In this document: one piece after another, positions 15,501 through 63,100 of the stretch | Position numbering within the stretch: the first letter of the stretch is position 1 | Layout: each line of letters opens with the position of its first letter | Source: Megalonaias nervosa | Lineage: Eukaryota > Mollusca > Bivalvia > Unionida > Unionidae | Reading direction: 5' to 3' | NCBI GenBank assembly: GCA_016617855.1 | Contig: JAECUM010003288.1 | Coordinates: forward strand, 1 to 64,000 | Length of the DNA stretch: 64,000 nucleotides | Program-made: the position numbers and the translations under genes | Notes under the pieces: generated by a model | Told to the model about the DNA's origin: nothing | Database searches by the model: none | Seen by the model: only the letters and a program-made list of their open reading frames with translations

Positions 15501-18500
15501 CACCTGATAGTAATTCAAACCCAAGCTATAACACAGACACTGAGTTGTGAAGGTTACCAGTAACTTCCCCCATATAAACCATAGCATACAAATAGTGATA
15601 TGAAGACGGCCACCAACCACTACCATTCAAATCCTAGTATTAAAATAGACATTAAATGAAAATTACCACCAACTACCACCATTTAACCATGCCGCACAAA
15701 AAGACTGATAAAGACAGTACTAAGTGACAAATAAAAACAAGGATGGGATTGGACTGCAATGCCAAATGCCAGATACTGTAAGTGATTTTCAACACTAACT
15801 AGCCATCACAGAACCTATTATTAATGAACTCAATAAAACCCATTAATGAACTCAATAAAACCAATTAAAATGCTCAGTGAAACATCTACTTGGACACAAT
15901 TATCAGATTTATAAAGAAAATGGTCTTTAACAATCAATCAAAAATTACTTTTAAATTGAGCTACTCACACTATCAGGGATATTAGCCAACTTTGCAGCAT
16001 TGAAGCCATAACTTTTAGGGCATGCTCCCTTGGAAAATTTGTACAGGAATGTGATGGTTTCCTGGGTTGGATCCTCTTCCTCATTCTCAACCATGCAAGC
16101 CTGCAATTAGCATGTGATAAAAAAGGTTGGAAAGAATTCAAATAAAATCTAATGCATTATACGTTTTCTTTCTTTTCAAAAGAGAAATTAAATCCTTGTT
16201 AAATATCTAAGATAGTATCTGCATGCCAACTCTTTTGTTTGATCAAATATTACAACTTTCCTCCTGTAACATTTTTAACTGAATAGGTAAGAAACTCAAA
16301 AACTCTATTTTAAATCTCCGGACCATGTATGGTTAGCAACATAAAAAAGTTCTCAAATTTTTCAATGAAAATATAAAACATTTGAAATTAATACAGGAAC
16401 CTTTCCTTCAAAAAATATGTAAGTTCACTAATTTTCATGCAATACCAGCTTTTATTAATTTCTTATTAGCAATGGCAACATTAGCTGATTTCAGAATGGA
16501 ATTATTTTGAACAAATCTGATACAGCTTTATGCCAAGATCTTTTTATTTAATAGTAAGTTTTTGTCAAATTTTCTTCAGCAGTTCTGAGAAGTCGATCTA
16601 CCTAATGTGAACCTTTGATGCTACCAAGTTTTGTCTGAAGCAGGATTACTCTCATGTCATCAAAACTAGAAATGAAGTGGGCAGGGGGAAAAAACAGGGG
16701 CAGGAAGAGGACAGAATTGGGTTCTGTCCTCTCTTTACCCCTGCTTTTTTTCACACTTCACATTTCAATATTTGCCTTTCTTCCTGCTTCACTCTGTCTA
16801 CTGGAATCAAAACCCTCATAAGATTCCCTCTCCAGCAATGTAAGAATTACTCTGTCATCTGTGTCTGGGCTTAATATGTCCCTTGTCTGAGTAGGAATAT
16901 TGTTTTCTGGTGAGAATCCAATATTGCAATCTACCATCAAGGGAATATAACATAGACAAGAAACTATTCTTCCTGGCTGTTTTGTAGAATTTTCATAGTT
17001 AACCACACCGACGCATGGATAACTATGCTATAAAGCGTGCATGACCTTGTAATTTGACAGGGTCATGTGAGAATTGATGTCCTAAAAATTCAAATACTGA
17101 TTTCCAATTTAAAAGGGTTATTTTCATCACAATTTTTACAATACAACACTTGCCAGTAGCTTCTCGTGGGTCGGTGGATCTTTCCTGGTGTTTTCTGGGT
17201 TCTTCCTCCACCATTAATACTGGCCACCATGTATAGCCTATCGTGTGCTGAAAAATGGCATTAAACCCTACAACAACAACAACAACAACAAACCTCTTGT
17301 CTTGGTGTTGTGTTGTAAGCACCTGTACTGTAACATCCAAGATTTCTGAAAATTTGTATCAAATTTTGGTTTCTTCTTTGCCAGTTCATCTAACCCAACA
17401 TCTGATATGGTTTTACAATTATTGTCAGCCGTTGAGTGAGAAACTCCACTTGGTACGCCACTTTCATCTTTCCACCATTTGCTGTGCTCATTCAAGAAAA
17501 CACTGAGTCAATGTTGAGAAGAATCAGTAATTCTCAATCCAACCGTGTTCCTCTATTATTTCACCTTCCAGAAATGGACCAAAATTCATGTGTATCTTAG
17601 GAAGAGCATCAGTTGCAGAACCCCTCATTTTTCTGTTGTGAATATTCAGTGGGTTTTCCAAGTATTCTTTGGTATCAACTTACATCTGCATACCTTGGAA
17701 ATCACAGCTCTGTCTTCTGAATAATTTTTTTGATTCTTATTTATTCAATTTATCGAAACAATGAAACAAACATTTTATACTGCTGTGAGCGAATCTGTAT
17801 GTGCACGATTCTAAACTAATTTGCAGAAGTTCTTACACATCATTGTTTCCTAGTGCACAATTCTGTAAAGTGTTTGTGTGATTTGCACGCTCATATGCCT
17901 ATGGCAGAATCTGTGAACTTGACAGATGAAGGACTATACGATTTTGTGGCCAGGTAAGCTAAAATGCTTGCATTAAGCGATGGAGAGACTTACCATGTGT
18001 CCCAGCCTGATATTGGGGTCATGTGAAAACTCCTCCACTAGCGAGTGATAGTGGGTTGAGAAAAGTGTACGGCAGCAGATGTTCTGAGACAGTTCCTCAA
18101 CCACAGAACAGGCAATGGCTGTACCATCATATGTAGCTGTGCCTCGGCCTGTGTGGAAAAATTGTATTGTCTTCATCAGGGATATTAGCAACAACAATAG
18201 TAGTACATACAATAGCAACAGTAGTACATACAATGGCAGTGGGAGTGCATGATATAGCAGTGGTAAAACATACAATAGCAGTGGTTGTACATGCAATAGC
18301 AGCAGTAGTACAGACAACAGCAGTGGTAGTACATACAATAACAGTGGTAATGGCTCTAACATAATATGTAGCTGTGCCTCGGCCCATGTGGAAAATATTA
18401 TCTACCTTCATCAGGGATATCAGCAATAGCAACAGTAGTGCATACAATAACAGTGGTAGTACATACAACAGCAGTGTTATACATCCAACAGCAGTGGTAG

Positions 18501-21500
18501 AGCAGTGGTAGTACCTACAATAGCAGTGGTACTACATACAATAGCAGTAGTAGTACATACAACAGCAGTGGGAATAGATACAATAACAGTTGTAGCATAT
18601 ACAATAGCAGTGGTACTACATGCAATAGCAGTGGTACTAAATACAACAGCAGTGGTAATACATGCAATAGCAGTGGTACTACATACAATAACAGTGGTAG
18701 TACATACAACAGCAGTGGTGGAGACAGGAATAGTAGTAGAAATAGTAGCTGCAACAACAGAAGTTGTATTAGTAACATTAAGAGTAGCAGTATTCACAGC
18801 CTAGTATTAAATATGATTTTGACATCCCCGAAGTGACAAACTGACACTCAGTGCTTGAACATTGTACTCACTGACTTGTATATAAAAGGGATAAACTGCC
18901 ACTCTGTCAAGTCTCAAACACTGTTCTCATTGGCTTGTATTTACCAGTGATAATCTGCCACCATTAGGTCTCAAAGATTGCACTCATCGGTTTTTATTTT
19001 CAAGTAGTGACTATCGAGTGCAAATTGGTTGTTAAAGAAACTTGTCCATTTCATCCATTAGCATTTTAAGCAGGTTCAGTATTAAAAAATCATTTCCATA
19101 TGACTGTTTAGGAGAAGTAGTGACAACAAGATTTTCAAGATTGTTGCCACGGCATCCATATTCAATATCTGCTCATTATAAATCTTTGAGTAAAAAATCC
19201 ACGCACATATGGCCACCTATTCAGTATTAGTAGCAATAACAAGATTTTCAAGAAGGCCACTGAATGTCTTACTGGCACCATTTTCATGTTAGGCCACTAG
19301 ACCTCTGGATGAATGTGTCTGAAAAGTTTTACTGCAACTGTCCAAGCATTTCAGTAGCAGCAGTGACAACAATCTTGTGCAACTGGAAGGTGGATGGAGG
19401 AGAATATAAGCTCTTCCAGTCCATGACAAGTGTTAAAAATAAAACTTCAATAGAAATATTGATGCTGCTTGTCACACTGCCAATGCTAAAAACAATGCCC
19501 ACATCTGATGGGGCTTACAATGAGACAAAAATATTTATTAAGTAAACTCAATTTAGTGATTAACTGTGACAAGAAAACATATTGAAACATTACTCCATAA
19601 GGGAAAACTGAAAATACTTTTGCTGAAATATACTTACCCAACTCATCCATTAGGACTAAGGAGTGTTGAGTTGCATGTTGTAAAATGGCTGAAGTTTCAC
19701 TCAGTTCAACGTAAAATGTGCTCTCACCTAATGGAAAAAAAAATGAATTTGAAATCAGGGCTGTTCCATTTAAACATACATTTATCCAGGGAAGGCAGTT
19801 TTTTTAAAATATATGCCAGGGTACTTTGATTTCACCAAGTTCATATTAAAATGATAAGAAAATTTTAAATTGCATCTAAGGGCATGTACCCATCATTAAA
19901 AGTGCCTTTCCTGGGACCCATGTACGTTTTACTGGAACAGCCCTCAATATGAACAGAGATCTCATCATCTTTTATAGTAACAGGCTGAAAATTAAAATCA
20001 GACCATTGGTTGTGATTAAACACTGTGCAACTGGTAAAATAAATCTACAAAATTTAAAAAATAGCAGAAAAAAATAGACAACTCTGCTGAAAAAGTCATT
20101 AAATTCAGCCAGTAGCTGAAAAAGTCAATGAATTCAGCCAGTGACTGGGAAAGTCAATAAATTCAACCAGTGGCTGAAAAAGTCAATAAATTCAGCCAGT
20201 GGCTGAAAAAGTCAATAAATTCAGCCAGTGGCTGGAAAAGTCAATAAATTCAGCTACTAGCTGAAAAAGTCAATAAATTCAGCCAGTGGCTGGAAAAGTC
20301 AATAAATTCAGCCAGCGGCTGGAAAAGTCAATAAATTCAGCCAGTGGCTGAAAAAGTCAATAAATTCAGCCAGTGGCTGAAGAAGTCAATAAATTCAGCC
20401 AGCAGCTGGAAAAGTCAATAAATTCAGCCAGTGGCTGAAAAAGTCAATAAATTCAGCCAGTGGCTGAAAAAGTCAATAAATTCAGCTACTAGCTGAAAAA
20501 GTCAATAAATTCAGCCAGAGGATGAAAAAGTCAATAAATTCAGCCAGTGGCTGAAAAGTCAATAAATTCAGCCAGTGGCTGGAAAAGTCAATAAGGGCTG
20601 TTCCATTAAAACATACATAGGACCCTGGGACGGCACTTTTAAAAACATCTATCCCAGGGTGGTCTTGATTCAAAATTGCTTCTGTCCCAGGTTGTTTATT
20701 CAATAAAATCGCTTCTATTGGTGGTTGGTATAACTGGTTCTGTAGGTCTGTCTAAAAGTGCGACCTAAACATAATAAAAAAACTTCCACTTTAGATACCC
20801 AGTTATTAAATTCGTATTTTATGTTATGTACGCCATATTTGTTCCCGTCAAGAGAAGGTCTATTTCCTTCGAATGGACAACAGACTATAAAACGTTGTCA
20901 TTGGTCAGCTATAAATAGGTCAGGAAAGCCTACCACATGATCTGCATTTGTAGTTTTACTAATCACAAAGTAAAAATCTTTGTCTTCATTTTCTCAATCA
21001 TAGGAAAACTAGCAGATTTTTAAAATAAATCTCCTTATAAAATTAAAGTGTAAATTCGTGACATTAATTTTAGTCTCGTGAGACTTGGTTTGCATCAGTT
21101 GGATCCGATGCGTGCTGCGAAAAGAAGCGAATGTAGCTGTATTGTGACAGTTATGGCGGTGAAACATGTTTTCGACAGGGGAAAAAGTCGGTATTTGGTT
21201 GAGAAAGCAAAGCCTTGAGAAATAATTGACAGCCTTAGAGGTAAGTTCTGTTATTTTTTCAGCAAGCTAATCAAAAAGTGTTAAGACTAGTGAAATTTGT
21301 TTATTCAATCATTACAAATGTTGTTGTCATAGACTCGTTTCTGTCGATCAAAAACCAATGGCATTGTAACACGTACTTGTCTTCATCCAATTAACTCAAG
21401 ATGACCGACACACATGAATTGGCGTGGGGCAGATTTCGCGATAGTTAATTGATTGAAGGGGTAGAAACGAACGCTTGTGTGTAATGGAGTCTTCGTTGGA

Positions 21501-38600: not shown

Positions 38601-41600
38601 AATATGGCTTCTATGTGAAAAAAGCTCTGACAATCACTCAAACTCATGTAATTATTGTGTGGTTCTCACCCACTATCAACCTTGATGTCAATTACTTCTA
38701 TGTCCAGTTTGTGAAATTTAAACTGTTCAACTTATATTTTACCTAGTTACCAGTATTCCCACCACTACCACAACCCACAATCCCCAACCCCCAGCAATAA
38801 TTCAATATTTTCTACTTGTATGAACTTGTGTCTAGTATGCCGAATAGTGTTATTTGGTCTGAACTGTCAGGTATGCCGAATACAGTGTTATTTGGTCTGA
38901 ACTCTCTGGTATGCTGAATACAGTGTTATTTGGTCTGAACTGTCTGGTATGCCGAATACAGTGTTATCTGGTCTGAACTGTCAGGTATGCCGAATACAGT
39001 GTTATTTGGTCTGAACTCTCTGGTATGCTGAATACAGTGTTATTTGGTCTGAACTGTCTGGTATGCCGAATACAGTGTTATCTGGTCTGAACTGTCTGGT
39101 ATGCTGAATACAGCGTTATTTGGTCTGAACACTCTGGTATGCTGAATACGGTGTTATTTGGTCTGAACTGTCTGGTAACCCGAATACAGCGTTATTGGGT
39201 CTGAACTGTCTGGTATGCCGATAGTGTTATTTGGTATGAACTGTCTGGTATGCCAATTACAAATTGTAATTTGGTATGAACTTGTGTCTGGTATACTGAT
39301 TACATTGTTATTTGGTATGAACCTACACATGGTATACCAATTCCAATATTATTTGGTACAAATGGTACGCCAAATACAGAGTTATTTCATATAACTTACA
39401 TCTGGTATGCCGATTACAGTATTGTTAGGAATGAAATCCCCTCCTGAGAAAGTTTTCGATACACATGGATGACGTCCATCTCTGATTTCCAGAAAGGGCT
39501 GAAATGTAAATAAACAGTTTTAAAAAATACTTATATGTCTATTTAAACAAATTTTTAAATGTCAAACATGTTATTGCTTTTAAAATTGGTTTCAAGACGT
39601 GGCCATAAAATTCACTTCTTCCAAAAATAAAATAAAACCTGCACACTTATCTGCACATTTGGAACATCTGTCAAGAGCATTCAAAGAATCATCTAGAAAT
39701 GGTATCTCCCACCCCACTCTCCACTGACACTGAAGTACACTAAGGTCCAGCATTTTTAATTAATATACTATTTATGATTGTACCCTATGGCCTAACATTT
39801 TCAATTAACAGACTTTTTATGATTGTACCCTATCGTCTGACATTTTCAATTAATATACTATTTATGATTGTACCCTATGGCCTAACATTTTCAATTAATA
39901 TACTACTTATGATTGTACCCTATGGTCTACCATTTACAATTATGTACTACTCATGACAGTACCCTCTGGTCTAACATTCTCAATTAATAGATTTCTTCTG
40001 ATAAAGCAGTTTTAATTAACAGACTTTTTATGATTGTACCCTATTGTCTGACATTTTCAATTAATATACTATTTATGATTGTACCCTATGGCCTAACATT
40101 TTCAATTAATATACTATTTATGATTGTACCCTATGGCCTAGTATTTTCAATTAATATACTATTTATGATTGTACCCTATGGCCTAACATTTTCAATTAAT
40201 ATACTATTTATGATTGTACCCTATGGTCTAATATTTTCAATTAATATACTATTTATGATTGTACCCTATGGCCTAACATTTTCAATTAATATACTATTTA
40301 TGATTGTACCCTATGGTCTAATATTTTCAATTAGAATACTATTTATGATTGTACCCTATGGCCTAATATTATCAATTAATATACTATTTATGATTGTACC
40401 CTATGACCTAACATTTTCAATTAATATACTACTTATGATTGTACCCTATGGTCTACCATTTACAATTATGTACTACTCATGACAGTACCCTCTGGTCTAA
40501 CATTCTCAATTAATAGATTACTTATGATAAAGCAGTTTTAATTAATAAACTATTTATGATTGTACCCTATCGTCTAACATTTTCAATTAATATACTATTT
40601 ATGATTGTACCCTATGGCCTAACATTTTCAATTAATATACTATTTTTGATTGTACCCTATTTTCTAATATTTTCAATTAATATACTCTTTATGCTACATT
40701 TTGGTTACATGGCAACCTAAAATATACTGAATGCATGAATGTTGAAATATTTAGCACCTCTATGCATCTTGAAATAAATAGCAAGTTTCATTAAATACCC
40801 TTAAGAATGCTCCAGACACAAAAATGTTTTCACAGATATAGTTTGAGGGAGATGGAGGAGGAGGAAAAAAAATGGACAAGGGACAACCAACGAAACATAA
40901 GATAATGAAATATGAAACACTAGAAAAATGTAAGCAACTAGGAATGTATTCAGCGAACACAACTGGGGAAGATATAATGTCTGCTGTTGTTGCTGTTACA
41001 GGGTTTAACGCCATTTTTCAGCACAATATAGGCTATACATGGTGGCCAGTACAAATGGTGGAGGAAGAACCAGGGAAAACCCCAGAAAGTACCACTGACC
41101 CACAAGCTACTGGCAAGCTTTCTCACATACCCACACTGGCTGAGCCCGAGACTCAAACCCACACAGACTGAGGTGAGATCGCAGTAATCCGTAACAGTGA
41201 GAGCTTTAGACCACTTGGGGTCTGAAAAGTAATGCTATCAAGTGAGTGGAATGGAAGTCTCATTTTTAATTCATCTGCTTGCATAGAAAGGATGCAATTA
41301 TGCTGGTATGTGGCAAGAAAAGCATTGTTTTACAAACAGTCAACTAAGAAACTTGGTAGTCAAATGCAAAAGATGGCTTATCACGGAAAAGTGTATTTTC
41401 AAAGTAAGCTCTCAAATAATGCAATTCCGGAGATAACTCAATACCACTGTGGATACCATGACCAAAATTAAAATATTTTTTAAATTTTGCTTTTTAAATT
41501 GGTCCATCAAATGCATAACAGAAAGTTTTCAAATAAGAGAACGGTTTTAATATCCAAGAGTTGTAACTGCAATCAAAACAATGCGACTTATCCAAAAAGA

Positions 41601-47600: not shown

Positions 47601-50600
47601 TCAATTGCATAAATGTATCATGCATGCTTAGTCGATTAATAAATTACATAAACGGATCATGCTTACTCAAGATAAAACATTCTGTTTATCACAACAGTTA
47701 CACTGCAACATTGCTGCATACTGTGCCACAATGTGAGCTGTGCTTTGTACAACGTACCATTATTACCATGATAACACACAACTGGTATCAGAAATGTTGA
47801 TATTTGCACAGCTTTGGTTCATCCAGTCTGAAACAGTTCCTTTAATTAAGAACATTTTTGGGAGATTTTAAGGACAACCAAGTTTTCATGGAACCTTGGT
47901 TCTTAGTGACAGTGAACTTCATCCATATGTTACTTTGTTTGTCACTGTGTAAACTTTTACCAAAGCAGAAGGAAAAAGATCTCACCAATCAGCATGCCAC
48001 CACTGCAAAGGTACACTTCTCCATCTGATAACAACCTGTTTTGAGTGTCATTTCAGTGACCAAAATTTGTATACCATTTAATTATTTGGTACTTCTAGAA
48101 AGTACATTTTAAAGAATTCTAAATTTAAATAGTGATATATTTCATTGTAATGTTTTTCTGTATTCTCTCTGATGAATCCAAGTCTGTTGATACATTTCAA
48201 GGAGTTTGCCATGAATTTGAGGACTTTCAAGGATAAAAACAACTTTGTACAAATTTGTGGAGTTTTCAAGGCAACCCTCCAATTACAGACTTTTTAAGTC
48301 ACTCCAATATTACAATATGCATGATACAACATTAATACTAAATGTAATTATATTGTTTAGTAAAATTTTCAAGGCTTGTGTGCAGAAAATAATAAATGAA
48401 CTTGTACCAAGATTCAAGTTATTTTTAATATACTGTATCATTTTCTATGATTTTTTTTTTATTATAACTAGCTTTGGCAATGATAAACTGTACATTCATT
48501 CAAAGAGATAAACTATATTTATTTTGTATGATATATCATACTCACTTTGTTAGATATTGTACATTCATTCAATGAGAAAAATTACCTTCTTTCAATGACA
48601 TACACTGTACACTCATTCTGAGAAAAACTACCCTCATTCAATGAGATACACTGTACACTCATTCTATGAGAAAAACTACCCTCATTCAATGAGATACACT
48701 GTACACTCATTCTATGAGAAAAACTACCCTCATTCACTGAGATACACTGTACACTCATTCTATGAGAAAAACTACCCTCATTCAATGAAATACACTGTAC
48801 ACTCATTCAATGAGAAAAAAATACCCTCATTCAATGAGATACACTGTACACTCATTCAATGAGGAAAAACTACCCTCATTCAATGAGATACACTGCACAC
48901 TCATTCTATGAGAAAAACTACCCTCATTCAATGATACACTGTACACTCATTCTATGAGAAAAACTACCCTCATTCAATGCGATACACTGTACACTCATTC
49001 TATGAGAAAAACTACCCTCATTCAATGAGATACACTGTACACTCATTCTATGAGAAAAACTACCCTCATTCAATGAGATACACTGTACACTCATTCAATG
49101 AGATAAACTACTCTCATTCAAAAAGACATATCATACACTGATTCAATGCGATAAAACTCATTCAATGAGACATTGTACACTTATTCAATGAGATGCACTC
49201 CTATTCAACGAGATAAAACTACTATCATTCAATAAGATAAATTGTACTCATTCAATCCAATAAACAACTCTCAGTTAAACAATGTACATTCAATAACTGT
49301 ATATTTGATACACTGTCCACATATGCAATGAGATCTACTGTACATTTATTCACTGATATATATTGTACATTTATTCAATGATATACTGTACATTTGTGCT
49401 GTACACTTATTCAAGCATGTGAAAACTTAAAATACAGAAACTAGCACAAAGTACGGTGATATATAGAGTATTGTGACCTTTATATCAAGGCATGTGTTAT
49501 CTTACAACATCATTAACACTGCCAATAATTAAGAATGCTATCTGATTGGTCCTATGTAGTTCCAGATAAGCATAGAATGTTACTTCATAAATCCAATTAC
49601 CTTGCCAGCTAGATTGGTCCTCTGTTGTTCCTGATAATCACAGAATGTTACTTCATAAAACTAATTACCTTGCAATCTAGACTGATCCTCTGTTGTTCCA
49701 GATAATCACATAATGTTACTTCATTAACCAATTACCTTGCCAGCTAGATTGGTCCTGTTGTTTCAGAAAATCACAGAATGTTACTTCATAAAACCAATTA
49801 CCTTGCAAGCTAGTCTGGTCCTCTGTTGCTCCAGGTAATCATTCAATGCCTGTTCTGTTGCCTTAATGTCAGAGACTGCCTTGTCATATTCTTTATCAAC
49901 ACCTGAAGTAAAAAATGTAATAAAAATCATTTTAGCTCAGCCATCTTACCCGAATAGTACAATGAACTCAGCCATCTTACCCGAATAGTACAATGAACTC
50001 AGCCATCTTACCCGAATAGTACAATGAACTCAGCCATCTTACCCGAATAGTACAATAAACTCAGCCATCTTACCTGAATAGTACAATGAACTCAACATCA
50101 ATGAAGATTAACTCAAATGATTTGCATGTAAATACAACTCAGTAAAAATAAAAACATGAATTTAAGGCCTGAATCACTTCAAACAAGTTTTTAACTAAAC
50201 TGAAAACAAAGAATGAACATTATCAATACAAGTTTGGTATTGTGGGGTTTAACACCATTTTTCAGCACACGAGGGGCTATACATTGTAGCCAGTATATTT
50301 TGGTGAAGGAAGAACCTGGGAAGAACCACCAAACCTCAAGACGCTACTTGTAAGCTTTCTCACATACCCATATCGACCTGAAACCATGCAGACTGAGGCA
50401 CTATGTGAGTGATCCATAAGGGCAAGTGCCTTAGACCACTCAACCACTCAGAACCCCTCGTCAAAACCAACCATAAATACATTTTAAAGATACCTGGTAC
50501 CAAAACGAAAATAAATACCACTTTTATATCTTTACAAGTATCCTCCTGAATGTAGTCTAATCTATGAACAGTGTAATATCACTAGAATCTTACACAGGCA

Positions 50601-56600: not shown

Positions 56601-59600
56601 TGAATATGAAAGAACAGTGCCTTTTGATTTAAACAGTCCAAGTATTATGGCAGTCCCTTAAAAGGTTTGGAACTTTCATCCATACAGAAAAAAATTCTCT
56701 TAACCAAGAATTTCCAATGAACTTGACCTTTCCTGAGTATCAGAGAAACAGATGGGACAATGGATATGAATGGGAAAAACTCCATAATTCTAAATTCAAA
56801 GAATAATAATACTCCTGGGTTTGGAACTACTGACCATAAACAAAAATCTCAACAAAAATTTGAGATATTTCAAATTTCCTTGACCTTGGTACATTGTCAG
56901 AGCAAGGGTTGGGGTAATGGATACGTAAGGGCAAAAGTCCCTAATTTACCAACACTCCCAGGGTTTCAAACAAATGACCATGTACTTTTAACAAAAACTT
57001 AACCAAGAATTTCAAATGACCTTGGATTGGATGCAGTTGGGCAACAACATTTTTAAATAAATCAAGGTCCACAAAGATTTGTTAACATGTAAAACATTAA
57101 ATAATAACAATAGTATGTACCAAATTTCACAGCAATTCATATAAAACTGCAAGACAACTTGCATCACCAAAATTTGGTCTTGCGCTGCATTTAGCTGCAG
57201 GCAAACACAAACAGCAATAACTCTTAACAAAGATCACAGGAATAATGTGATTTTTATCAATATCTGTATCATCCAGCTATTACAATAATATTTATCAATT
57301 TTCATGCCATTCCACCAGCAGAACTGTTTGTAATGGACCAATTGCACTCAAACAGTTGTGATAATTGGAAATATAAAGAATTCTCAACTAACTGCATAAT
57401 AATAGCACATTTCTCATAATACTTACACAACCTAAGCTGTATAAAATAACTGCAACAGTAAAAGATGCAGCAGACAATTCACTTCGTACAACTCAAGAAA
57501 AACTAAAATAACTACAAGAAGATGAATCAAGAACAAAGACTCACTCAAAGATTAAAACCTATGCAAATAAGCATATTAATGTTATAAGTTTTGCTTTTCT
57601 CAACAAAAAATCCAAACTGTATGAAACTTTGCTGGTAATTTTTTCTTTTCTTTAGGTGTGATAAGATTCTGGTAATTGCCTACTTCACATATACCTTACC
57701 ATATGCTTCTTGCCCAGATCAAATGTGGTCTTCTTTGGGGAATTGGCAGGTGCAGAATCCAGTGGCACATATTGCTCAAAGTTCTTCATGGATAACAATT
57801 CCTTGTCCATGAGTGAATACTGTAAATACCTGTGTAAACGGAAACCATGAAGATCATGAATTATTAGTTGCATAACAGTACCTGTGTGAAAGGAAATCAT
57901 GAAGATCATGAATTATTAGTTGCATAACAGTACCTGTGTGAAAGGAAACCATGAAGATCATGAATTATTGTGTAACAGTACCCGTGTGATGGGAAACCAT
58001 GAAGATCATGAATTATTAGTTGCATAACACTACCTGTGTGAAGGGAAACCATGAAGATCATGAATTATTTGTTGCATAACTACCTGTGTGAAGGGAAACC
58101 ATGAAGATCATGAATTTTACAGAAATAAACACAACTGGGTCTGATCACACGGTTATGTTCTTACCAGTGGAAATCTTCCCTACATTTACCAACTGATACA
58201 ACTGCAATTATTCTATTAAGACACATTACTCTAGGCCTGCAGACTTAACCATCATCATATCATGACATATTGGTCTAGGCCTGCAGACAAATCCAACATC
58301 CTATCATGACACATTAATCTAGGCCTGCAGACAAGTCCATATCTCTAATGACACATTAGTCTAGGCCTTAAGACAAATCCATCATCCTATCATGACACAT
58401 AATTCTAGGCCTGCAGACAAATCCATGATCTCTGAATGACACATTAGTCTAGGCCTTAAGACAAATCCATCATCCTATCATGACACATAATTCTAGGCCA
58501 GCTGAAAAATCCATGTCCTGTCATCACACATTAGTCCACATCTTCCAGTTGTGCAGAAATTTTGTTAAAATCAAGTTGTCCACTGACAATTACAAAATTT
58601 ACTTATCTGTATAAAAGACCCATTCATCTGTATTTGCATAGTTGAAACAAATAGTGGAAGGCAGACTCTTAAAATGTTTACTTGTATTAAGTTGCACCAT
58701 TACATGCTAGCAGTATGGATCTGTGGCATGTAAAATATACTTTCAATTTCATCTGGTCTTGTTTTTGGACTTTTATGGTCAGGTTCTACAAATCCAACAA
58801 GACTGCATTCTTGGTATATAACTGCTGAATCAGTACTAGCATCTGAAAAGATTGATATGAATTTAGCCCTAGATATATTATCCTTGACATTTTTCAGTAG
58901 ACATCAGATGTACTGTTGATGAAATATATTCATGCGGTTTTGTTGATATGATAATTTCCAAGTTCAACACCAGTTTGGATTTGAACTGCACAAAGAAATT
59001 CATAAAGTGAAAAAGATTTTCTCTGCTTTGCTATGGCATATGCTGTGTTAAAAAGCTTGTAATGCTTGGTTTGATTCGCATTGTATTAATTGATCACTCT
59101 GTCTAAATCACCCACTTCTTTTTTCTCAGGTTTGGCCTTTTCATTACCAAACTGACATGTATTGTGCTTTGCACTTTTTGGTATATTAACAGTGTGTTTT
59201 CTTTGTGATAACCTGTCCTGAAAACAATTTACAGGTTTTATCAGAGGGATAAGTTTTATGTATTATACGTTGTATATTACAAGCTGCAATTATCCAATCT
59301 TCATTGGACTTAAGCCCAGGAAACTCCTGCAGCCAAATATCTTTGAACTCCTGTTTTATCATTTTTCCTGTCATAGTCAAGTTTAGTTTAACCTGTTTTG
59401 TAGACTTTCAACTTTTCACCTTTCAGCTCTAGCTTCAAAAGAAAGCAATCCGTCTTGATGCACTTATCGTAGTCATGTATACTGATTTCAACAAGTCTGT
59501 CAATTGGTACAGAACAACAGATTCCTCAGGGAAGCCCCATCCTCCTGCCAGTGAAATTCATTTGGGTGTAATCATCAAAAGATATCACCTAAAATAGTAC

Positions 59601-60194: not shown

Positions 60195-63100
60195 TTATAC
60201 AAAAAACTGAAATGTAAAACTTACCAAGTAATAGCCCCCAAAGCACTTATTGCAAGACTGTATTCTTCTGCAGCTGTCAATCCTAACGAATCAGCTGAAA
60301 AATATGAAAATTTATTAAAAAACTTCAGCAGTGGACATTATTTTAAATATGCAGGTATCTATGGGAATGAAACACCATGTATCTTCTATAATAATATTGC
60401 ATCTCCATCTCTATGTAGGTAGATAAGTATTTAACACATGTGCCTCCTGATGGCTGCAGGAACAAAGCATAAAAATGGATGTGTCACATAGGATCATTTA
60501 ATTTTCTATTATGTCAGAGTTTAATTTGTGTCACTCAGAATACTGTGCAAAGTTTCAATAAACATATAATTATGTTATTGTAGATTTAATGCCATTTTTC
60601 AGCAACTGATGAGCTATACATGGTGGCCAGTATAATTGGTGGAAGAAGAATCCAGGAAGACCATGAAAAGAATCACAGACCCATAGGAAGCTACTAGCCA
60701 GCTTTCTCACATAACCACAAAGGCCTAGCCTGAGACCTGAAATCAGGCAGAGGTCAAATGGCAGTGATCAGTAAAGGTGAGCACTTCAGACCCCTCCACT
60801 ATAATTATGGTCATTAACAAAAGAAAAAAAAACAAGAAAAAGAGGTATAGTCCAGATACCAGATAAATCCAGTGATAAATTTACCACATGCTTATATTTT
60901 TTAGCCACCTCTTCATCAAAGACACTAGGAAAACATTAATTCTTATTATCCAATACACTACAGTAGCCTTTAACCCATAACCATTTTCATTTCATCCCCA
61001 TATCCACACTACCACATTAGATATGACTGGGAAGATCTCACAAGGCCAAATTTTGACAGTGGACACGTATAAATGGATAGTCAAAAGCAAATTTCACAGA
61101 ATATAAATTTCAGCACTAAAAATGTTACATAGCTGCCAATCCTCCTGGATCGCAATTAGTGAAAATAGGGAAAAAAATTAGTCAATTATGACATGAATGC
61201 GTGAAGCAATATTCAAGTCCAGGAATACATGTCGGAACAAATGTTTAGCATGGGTTCCAGCTGATAAAGGTACATTGTGTTCAACATGCAGGTCTTCCGT
61301 CGATGGCTTAGAATATTCCAGAGCTGAAATCTGCTGGAGTTCTTAATTTTCCCAACCTCTATGTGCTTTTTGCTAACAATGTGCTTCCTTACATCATCTT
61401 TGCCACCATGCCCAATGCTGCAATTTATGGCACACTGTGTGCAAAAAGCATGATGTATAATCAGTGTTTGATGGCTGAATGCATGGCCAATTGTTGGTAT
61501 ATTCGAAACTAAACTTCTCCTTTTGTGCAATACATTTCTTTTTCCTTGGTGGTGAAGACATTTTCAATATCAATGTCGAACGGCAATTCAAATCAGTGTT
61601 GGCGGCGCATACGCGGAGTAACATTCCAGTTTGGCCCAAGTTTCTCTCAAAAGCATTTGTAAAACTACTCTTATCCAAATAGATTAAAATATGCTAAAAT
61701 GCTTGATACTGGGACAACTGTATCAATTGGCTCTAGTTCTACTAATATCACAGCCAGCAATACCTGACAATTTTGGCAACTGCCGATATCACGACTAGCA
61801 CGTAATGGGAAATTGGTCATTTTATTAAAGATTTAAAATAATAAGAATTGGGGAATTCTTAAATTTTTTTGCATGCAGCATGAATCCGTGAATCGCAGAA
61901 AAAGGTGTGAAATTCACACCAAAATCATGAGGGTTGGCAGCTATGTGTTTATTCTTTGATAGATCTGGCATGCAAGACAAGCTGATTTTGCTCGTCTTAG
62001 CAAAGAAGTGTAGTAATTCTGCAAAAATATTACATCCTATGGAAATCAAATTTTTTATTTGTATGTACACGATAACTGACATTCTGTGACAAGTTATACC
62101 TTCTGATATCATCTTTAAAACATCTGGCCAATTAAACTCGTTGACAACTGTTATACCTTCTGATATCATCTTCTTTAAAACATCTGGCCAATTAAACTCG
62201 TTGACAAGTGTTATACCTTCTGATATCATCTTCTTTAAAACATCTGGCCAATTAAACTCGTTGACAAGTGTTATACCTTCTGATATCATCTTCTTTAAAA
62301 CATCTGGCCAAATAAACTCATTGAGAAGTGTTATACCTTCTGATATCATCTTCTTTAAAACATCTGGCCAAATAAACTCATTGACAAGTGTTATACCTTC
62401 TGATATCATCTTCTTTAAAACAACTGGCCAAATAAACTCATTGACAAGTGTTATACCTTCTGATATCATCTTCTTTAAAACATCTGGCCAAATAAACTCA
62501 CTGACAAGTGTTATACCTTCTGATATCATCTTCTTTAAAACATCTGGCCAAATAAACTCATTGGACTCTTCAGCCTTAAAGTAGTCTTTCTCTGCTAGAA
62601 CCTTTAGGGTCTTTCCACTATCCCAGAATTCCTTGCCTGGGACAAGGGGTTCCTTTAAGCAAGATGTCAGGTTGTTTGAGAGCATTTGAGAAGTTTTCTG
62701 TGACATCTTCCCCTTCTCATGAAGAACCTGTTAACAAACATGTAAACTGTCATTTTTGGTTTGATCATACAGACCTAAGTATGTAAATGGAAAAGAACAA
62801 AACATCCAGACCTAAGTGTGTCAATGGTAAAGAATGTAGCATCCAGACCTAAGTGTGTCAGTGGAAAAGAACAAAACATCCAGACCTAAGCATGTCAATG
62901 GAAAAGAACACAACATCCAGACCTAAGTGTGTCAGTGGAAAAGAACATTAAGACTGAAGTGTGTCAGTGAAAAAGAACATAACTTCTGGGCTTAACTGTG
63001 TCAATGGAAGAGAACAAAACATCCAAGCTTAAGTGTGTCAATGGAAGAGAACATAACATCCAAGCTTAAGTGTGTCAATGGAAGAGAACATAACATCCAA

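What the first reader, a model, noticed from the sequence alone, without database searches (positions are those of the whole stretch)
62094..62727. Eight tandem, in-frame splice donors in MSH6: a possible length-variable coding module
The 60-bp unit joins ~46 nt of exon B 3' end to 14 nt of intron, including the donor AGAAG|GTATAA. Eight copies follow one another with no stop codon, and seven spacings are 60, 60, 60, 60, 60, 60 and 57 nt. Every donor therefore ends in the same phase and would splice correctly to exon C. Transcripts could carry 0 to 7 extra modules of 20 (last 19) residues in the connector region of MutS-alpha without breaking the frame. I know of no such arrangement in MSH6. 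The copies are very similar, so copy number is probably polymorphic.
Basis: partly seen in the sequence, partly recalled or inferred. Interest (0 to 1): 0.88.

Follow-up and report, generated by a model that had tools for sequence, protein, structure and literature searches.

The report
Eight repeated splice sites in MSH6
A DNA-repair gene, likely from a freshwater mussel, carries eight near-identical tandem copies of one exon end with its splice site, all in one reading frame; the cell would most likely use the first copy and discard the rest as intron, so extra protein modules are possible but look unlikely to matter.

Summary
On the minus strand, the second MSH6 exon in the window (62727-62517) ends in a 60-bp unit (46 exon + 14 intron bases) present eight times. 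The donor AGAAG|GTATAA ends exon sequence at 62517, 62457, 62397, 62337, 62277, 62217, 62157 and 62100, always in phase 1, without a stop; the next exon (60294-60225) accepts that phase. The gene matches Sinanodonta woodiana MSH6 (688 of 717 residues outside the unit), so the source is probably a unionid mussel.

The coding-module reading is weakly supported. Minisatellites cover a fifth of the gene, and other exon edges are also copied into introns (donors of exons 11 and 14, acceptor of exon 18; the acceptor of exon 4 lies in an array). At exons 4 and 11 each extra site would put a stop into the protein. An open, frame-keeping unit has a chance near 0.2. The copies change without coding constraint (5 amino-acid changes, 1 silent), and 120 of 120 related MSH6 proteins lack a module. 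This is a "mirage", known from amphioxus. Less expected: the exon's own array-embedded last 15 codons differ unusually from S. woodiana (11 of 15 identical).

The parts
62517..62727 (-).
62086..62562 (-). Tandem array of eight 60-bp units (last one 57): 46 exon-like nt + 14 intron nt; unit 1 is the exon end itself
   Evidence: TRF; units listed
62516..62517 (-). Donor 1, AGAAG|GTATAA; predicted main site (S. woodiana MSH6 ends its homologous segment here)
   Evidence: preference for the first of equal donors is from PMC6783452 section 7
62099..62457 (-). Donors 2-8, same nine-base site and phase (last exon base 62457, 62397, 62337, 62277, 62217, 62157, 62100)
62501..62502 (-). Extra donor-like site TCA|GTGAGT made by a base change in unit 2; same phase, 15 nt past donor 1; scores higher than the array donors
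   Evidence: 1.40 against -1.14, simple recalled matrix
60225..60294 (-).
57827..58116 (-). Array over the acceptor of exon E4 (57829-57700): six acceptor-like sites, five of them extra; each extra one leads to a stop
49536..49841 (-). Array over the donor of exon E11 (49902-49802): four donors, three extra; each extra one leads to a stop
38829..39322 (-). Array derived from the 3' end of exon E14 (39498-39400); 11 junction equivalents found, none keeps the GTAAGT donor
18200..18719 (-). Array upstream of exon E18 (18148-17994) that holds a copy of the E18 start

Best explanation
The feature is eight tandem copies of the junction between an MSH6 exon and its intron, a minisatellite of the 'mirage' kind that likely arose by local tandem duplication, and its seven extra copies are predicted to be removed with the intron because the spliceosome would favour the first of eight equal donors. 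Shown: the anatomy, the phase, the open frame, the identical donors, and similar exon-edge copies elsewhere in the gene. Inferred: origin by slippage or unequal exchange, use of donor 1, occasional in-frame use of later donors or of the extra site at 62502, and the source as a unionid mussel. Because every array donor is in phase, slips to a later one would cost only 19-20 residues each instead of the message, which would let this array grow under weak selection.
For: Eight identical donors in one frame. Exon-edge copies in the adjoining intron at 4 of 40 exon edges tested (donors E2, E11, E14; acceptor E18), plus the E4 acceptor inside an array. For E4, 5 of 5 extra acceptors and for E11, 3 of 3 extra donors would add stops, so the exon-adjacent site must serve there. 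Substitutions between units show no coding constraint. No module in 120 of 120 aligned MSH6 proteins. Of two equal-strength donors the first was favoured in a human-cell library (PMC6783452, section 7 read). Amphioxus mirages are reported to leave splicing normal (PMC3087553, PMC3902484, passages).
Against: No RNA evidence was available. The donors are weak: -1.14, second lowest of 20 scored (the E20 boundary among them was misplaced by a base), and four other GT sites between 62727 and 61825 score higher. The human-cell rule was measured on other sequences and in another animal. Arrays do not touch splice junctions more often than chance: 3 of 41 junctions against 8.1 expected from circular shifts, which ignore selection against arrays in exons. 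The frame stays open 91 codons past the last donor, which 0.8% of 6568 random intron starts do.
Confidence: 0.72

Rival explanations
1. Length-variable coding module: several donors are used at appreciable levels, so MSH6 carries 0 to 7 extra modules of 19-20 residues in the connector domain.
For: All eight donors are in phase with no stop and fit the next exon. The only indel inside an array unit before a donor is 3 nt, in frame. In human segmental duplications, boundary repeats with alternative repeat-bearing transcripts are reported and 9 of 10 coding ones are in frame (PMC2812944 Table 2, passages).
Against: 5 of 6 variable columns change an amino acid. Chance of an open in-frame unit about 0.2. 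No module in 120 of 120 proteins nor in the module-bearing search. First-donor preference.
Confidence: 0.12
2. The array is wholly exonic: the last donor (62100) is the main one and the normal protein carries all seven extra modules.
For: The open frame runs through all copies and beyond. The last copy keeps the same donor.
Against: The exon would grow from 211 to 628 nt and add 139 residues inside MutS_II; 120 of 120 related proteins have no insertion there; no coding constraint between units.
Confidence: 0.05
3. Assembly artefact: the true locus has fewer copies, inflated by the assembler.
For: Copy number cannot be checked without reads. The gene shows another oddity: exon E12 is 17 nt shorter than S. 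woodiana predicts, shifting the frame.
Against: The units carry private differences at 6 columns and a 3-nt deletion, and the flanks are coherent. Other exon-edge arrays with their own differences lie in the same gene.
Confidence: 0.06

Closest known systems
Amphioxus 'mirages' (Adh3, globins BflGb6 and BflGb9, troponin C, PGBD5)
   Same: Minisatellite-like tandem copies spanning an exon-intron boundary, at donors or acceptors, many keeping AG/GT signals; lancelet PGBD5 has 2 or 7 copies of a 60-bp repeat beside a splice site (PMC3087553, PMC3902484, passages)
   Different: Here in a likely mollusc and in MSH6, with eight donors all in one open frame. Copy-number instability, reported for amphioxus, was not testable here.
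Human internal tandem repeats at exon-intron boundaries in segmental duplications
   Same: Minisatellite expansion at exon edges that alters gene structure, mostly in frame when coding, with alternative transcripts (PMC2812944, passages)
   Different: Those are young human paralogues; this is a gene whose exon structure matches one in a mussel, with no duplicate found within the window.
Intron gain by tandem genomic duplication of AGGT-bearing sequence (Rogers model; potato RdRp case)
   Same: Tandem duplication of a segment with AG|GT makes spare splice sites (PMC4974935, PMC3443670, listing and start of abstract only; PMC3087553 passages)
   Different: No new intron is evident here: the duplicated edge belongs to an intron already present.
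GYNGYN tandem donors
   Same: Neighbouring in-phase donors can give small protein variants (PMC1779574, listing and start of abstract only)
   Different: Those sit 3 nt apart and are not repeat arrays.

Membership tests
[quoted passage not shown]
   46 exon + 14 intron nt per unit, eight units
Mirage (boundary-spanning minisatellite) | Extra copies keep splice signals | tested here: met
   8 of 8 donors identical over nine bases
Mirage (boundary-spanning minisatellite) | Normal splicing unaffected | not testable with these tools
   No RNA data; 120 of 120 related proteins have no module, which is indirect
Mirage (boundary-spanning minisatellite) | Copy number varies between haplotypes or cells | not testable with these tools
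   One assembly only; the genome search did not complete
Length-variable coding repeat (exonic VNTR) | Unit length a multiple of 3 and frame open | tested here: met
   60/57 nt, no stop
Length-variable coding repeat (exonic VNTR) | Purifying selection on the encoded unit | tested here: not met
   5 changing, 1 silent column against 134 to 36 expected by chance; few changes, so low power
Length-variable coding repeat (exonic VNTR) | Repeats present in the mature message | not testable with these tools
   No RNA data

The most novel reading that the evidence does not exclude
The array is a working dial on MutS-alpha and on its own gene: graded use of eight in-frame donors gives MSH6 with 0 to 7 helical modules in the connector domain, copy number differs between animals, and exchange between array and exon rewrites the exon's own last 15 codons, so that an intronic minisatellite drives protein change in a mismatch-repair gene.
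Probability: 0.1. Interest if true: 0.8.

Novelty: new member of a known kind. Interest (0 to 1): 0.42.

Why it matters
If the reading is right, boundary-spanning minisatellites are not peculiar to amphioxus but occur in a likely mussel gene, several per gene. The array gives a natural test of how a spliceosome picks among eight identical donors whose misuse is harmless to the frame. The fast change in the exon's array-embedded end suggests a route by which intron repeats could alter protein sequence, testable with unionid genomes already sequenced.

Tried and rejected
Targeting of arrays to splice junctions: rejected, contact is not enriched (3 of 41 junctions, 8.1 expected). The TRF output of 55 rows was reduced by hand to 34 arrays, of which 26 with score 100 or more were used. 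Selection to keep the frame: rejected for want of evidence. A meaningful second product from the open frame past the last donor: the Pfam scan of the 301-residue frame gave six families, none reaching its curated cut-off. On the opposite strand a Pfam oestrogen-receptor model scored 35.4, above its cut-off of 27, over residues 32-56 of a repeat-made frame, but with no single stretch passing on its own; I take it as a repeat artefact. Structure of the 209-residue module piece: mean pLDDT 46.6 from one sequence, mostly helices, too poor to use. The alignment for a deeper model scattered the modules, so it was not used. Rfam: no match in the window. A weak 32-bp repeat with GTAAGT sites after exon E8 was seen by eye, but the exon-edge test for E8 was negative. 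Papers not held: three look-ups. Searches for mussel minisatellite genomes and for MSH6 splicing in bivalves gave one irrelevant paper each.

Full report
What is there. The window holds the greater part of an MSH6 gene on the minus strand. A PDB sequence search with the exons around the finding hits human MSH6 (E 1.5e-20). A tblastn with human MSH6 and then with the Sinanodonta woodiana protein P0001 maps 21 exons from 63883 to 6465, the latter reaching the C-terminus of P0001; the N-terminal exons lie outside the window. P0001 is the best of the 120 hits listed out of 798 (94% by BLAST over 75% of the query), and 688 of 717 residues outside the repeat unit are identical. S. woodiana is a unionid bivalve. 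I infer that the window is from a unionid mussel; no tool named it.

The array. Exon E2 (62727-62517) ends with AATGAGTTTATTTGGCCAGATGTTTTAAAGAAGATGATATCAGAAG|GTATAACACTTGTC. This 60-base unit, 46 exon plus 14 intron bases, occurs eight times (62562-62086), the last 57 long. All eight donors share the same nine bases, spaced 60 x6 and 57, all in phase 1, with no stop between them. Exon E3 at 60294 accepts that phase. Taking every unit would add 139 residues (872 against 733) inside Pfam MutS_II.

Chance. The exon edge scores 90 against its own intron, against at most 25 in 100 shuffles and 23 in other introns, so the duplication is beyond doubt. The in-frame property is different: one third for the period, times 37 of 60 for 14 intron bases without a stop (20 donors in three phases, one of them, E20, misplaced by a base), gives about 0.2. 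The frame also runs 91 codons beyond the last donor; 0.8% of 6568 random intron starts do that. I have no explanation beyond chance for this and report it as a point against the purely intronic reading.

Not alone. Tandem arrays with TRF score 100 or more (26 after hand reduction of 55 rows to 34) cover 19.7% of the gene span. In a test of 40 exon edges against the adjoining intron, 4 beat both controls: donors of E2, E11, E14 and acceptor of E18. The acceptor of E4 also lies at the end of an array, though only three exon bases are shared, so that edge test misses it. E4 has six acceptor-like sites; 5 of 5 extra ones lead to a stop. E11 has four donors; 3 of 3 extra ones lead to a stop. In the E14 array, 11 junction equivalents were found and none keeps the donor GTAAGT. 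So in this gene the exon-adjacent site must be the working one where it can be judged. Contact of arrays with junctions is, however, not above chance (3 of 41 against 8.1), so I do not claim that arrays target junctions.

Which donor. The eight donors are equal and weak (-1.14, second lowest of 20 scored). Four other GT sites between 62727 and 61825 score higher; the best, TCA|GTGAGT at 62502, was made by a base change in unit 2, lies in the same phase and would add five residues (simple matrix recalled from memory). In a human-cell library, when two donors are equal the first is favoured, and the stronger dominates when they differ (PMC6783452, section 7 read in full). By that rule donor 1 should lead, with 62502 as its closest rival. 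This is a prediction; no RNA was available.

Is the module coding? Units 1-7 vary at six columns: five change an amino acid, one is silent. Of 180 possible single changes 36 are silent, 134 changing, 10 stops, so there is no sign of constraint, with low power. The sole unit indel before a donor is 3 nt, in frame. None of 120 aligned MSH6 proteins has extra residues at the join: all 121 rows, window included without module, have 13 or 14 residues there. A 232-residue module-bearing query found one protein, a shark fragment matching 22% of the query.

Feedback on the exon. The exon's last 15 codons are themselves repeat unit 1. There the window and S. woodiana agree at 11 of 15 residues, against 688 of 717 elsewhere (Fisher p 0.0033). 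Among 626 pairs of other MSH6 proteins with 93-97.5% identity over the rest, none is as low (lowest 0.87, mean 0.987). Against this: the pairs share species and come from a list rich in birds and other vertebrates; across all 120 proteins this segment is more variable than the rest (0.388 against 0.22 non-modal); and the test was chosen after seeing the data. One site hints at exchange: units 6-8 read AAT (Asn), one step from the Lys of S. woodiana, while the exon and units 2-5 share ATT (Ile). I read this as possible exchange between exon and array, unproven.

What is known. Tandem repeats over exon-intron boundaries are called mirages in amphioxus and are reported in Adh3, globins, troponin C and PGBD5, without disturbing normal splicing (PMC3087553, PMC3902484, passages). 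The lancelet PGBD5 case includes 60-bp repeats beside a splice site, 2 or 7 copies by assembly. Human boundary repeats in young paralogues are often in frame and alternatively spliced (PMC2812944, passages). My searches turned up no bivalve case and none in MSH6; the library lacks most subscription journals.

Verdict. A real and pretty example of a known kind, in a likely new phylum, with a frame-safe set of eight donors that is probably a matter of luck. The coding-module reading remains possible and easy to test.

Noticed in passing
45309-45097 (exon E12), break at 45235-45230: Against S. woodiana, 7 codons are replaced by 4 bases, a net loss of 17 nt that shifts the frame before the ATPase domain: a null allele, a pseudogene or an assembly error.
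   Followed up: partly
whole window: Minisatellites with units of about 20 to 135 bp cover 19.7% of the gene span.
   Followed up: partly
57827-58116: Six tandem acceptor-like sites before exon E4, five of which would add stops.
   Followed up: yes
53158-53000: Diverged repeats of about 32 bp with GTAAGT-like sites follow exon E8; the exon-edge test was negative.
   Followed up: partly
62099-61825: The E2 frame stays open 91 codons past the last donor, rare among random intron starts (0.8%); no Pfam match above cut-off.
   Followed up: partly
62776-63262: A 37-bp minisatellite, 13.3 copies, ends 49 bases before the acceptor of exon E2, so this exon is flanked by arrays on both sides.
   Followed up: no
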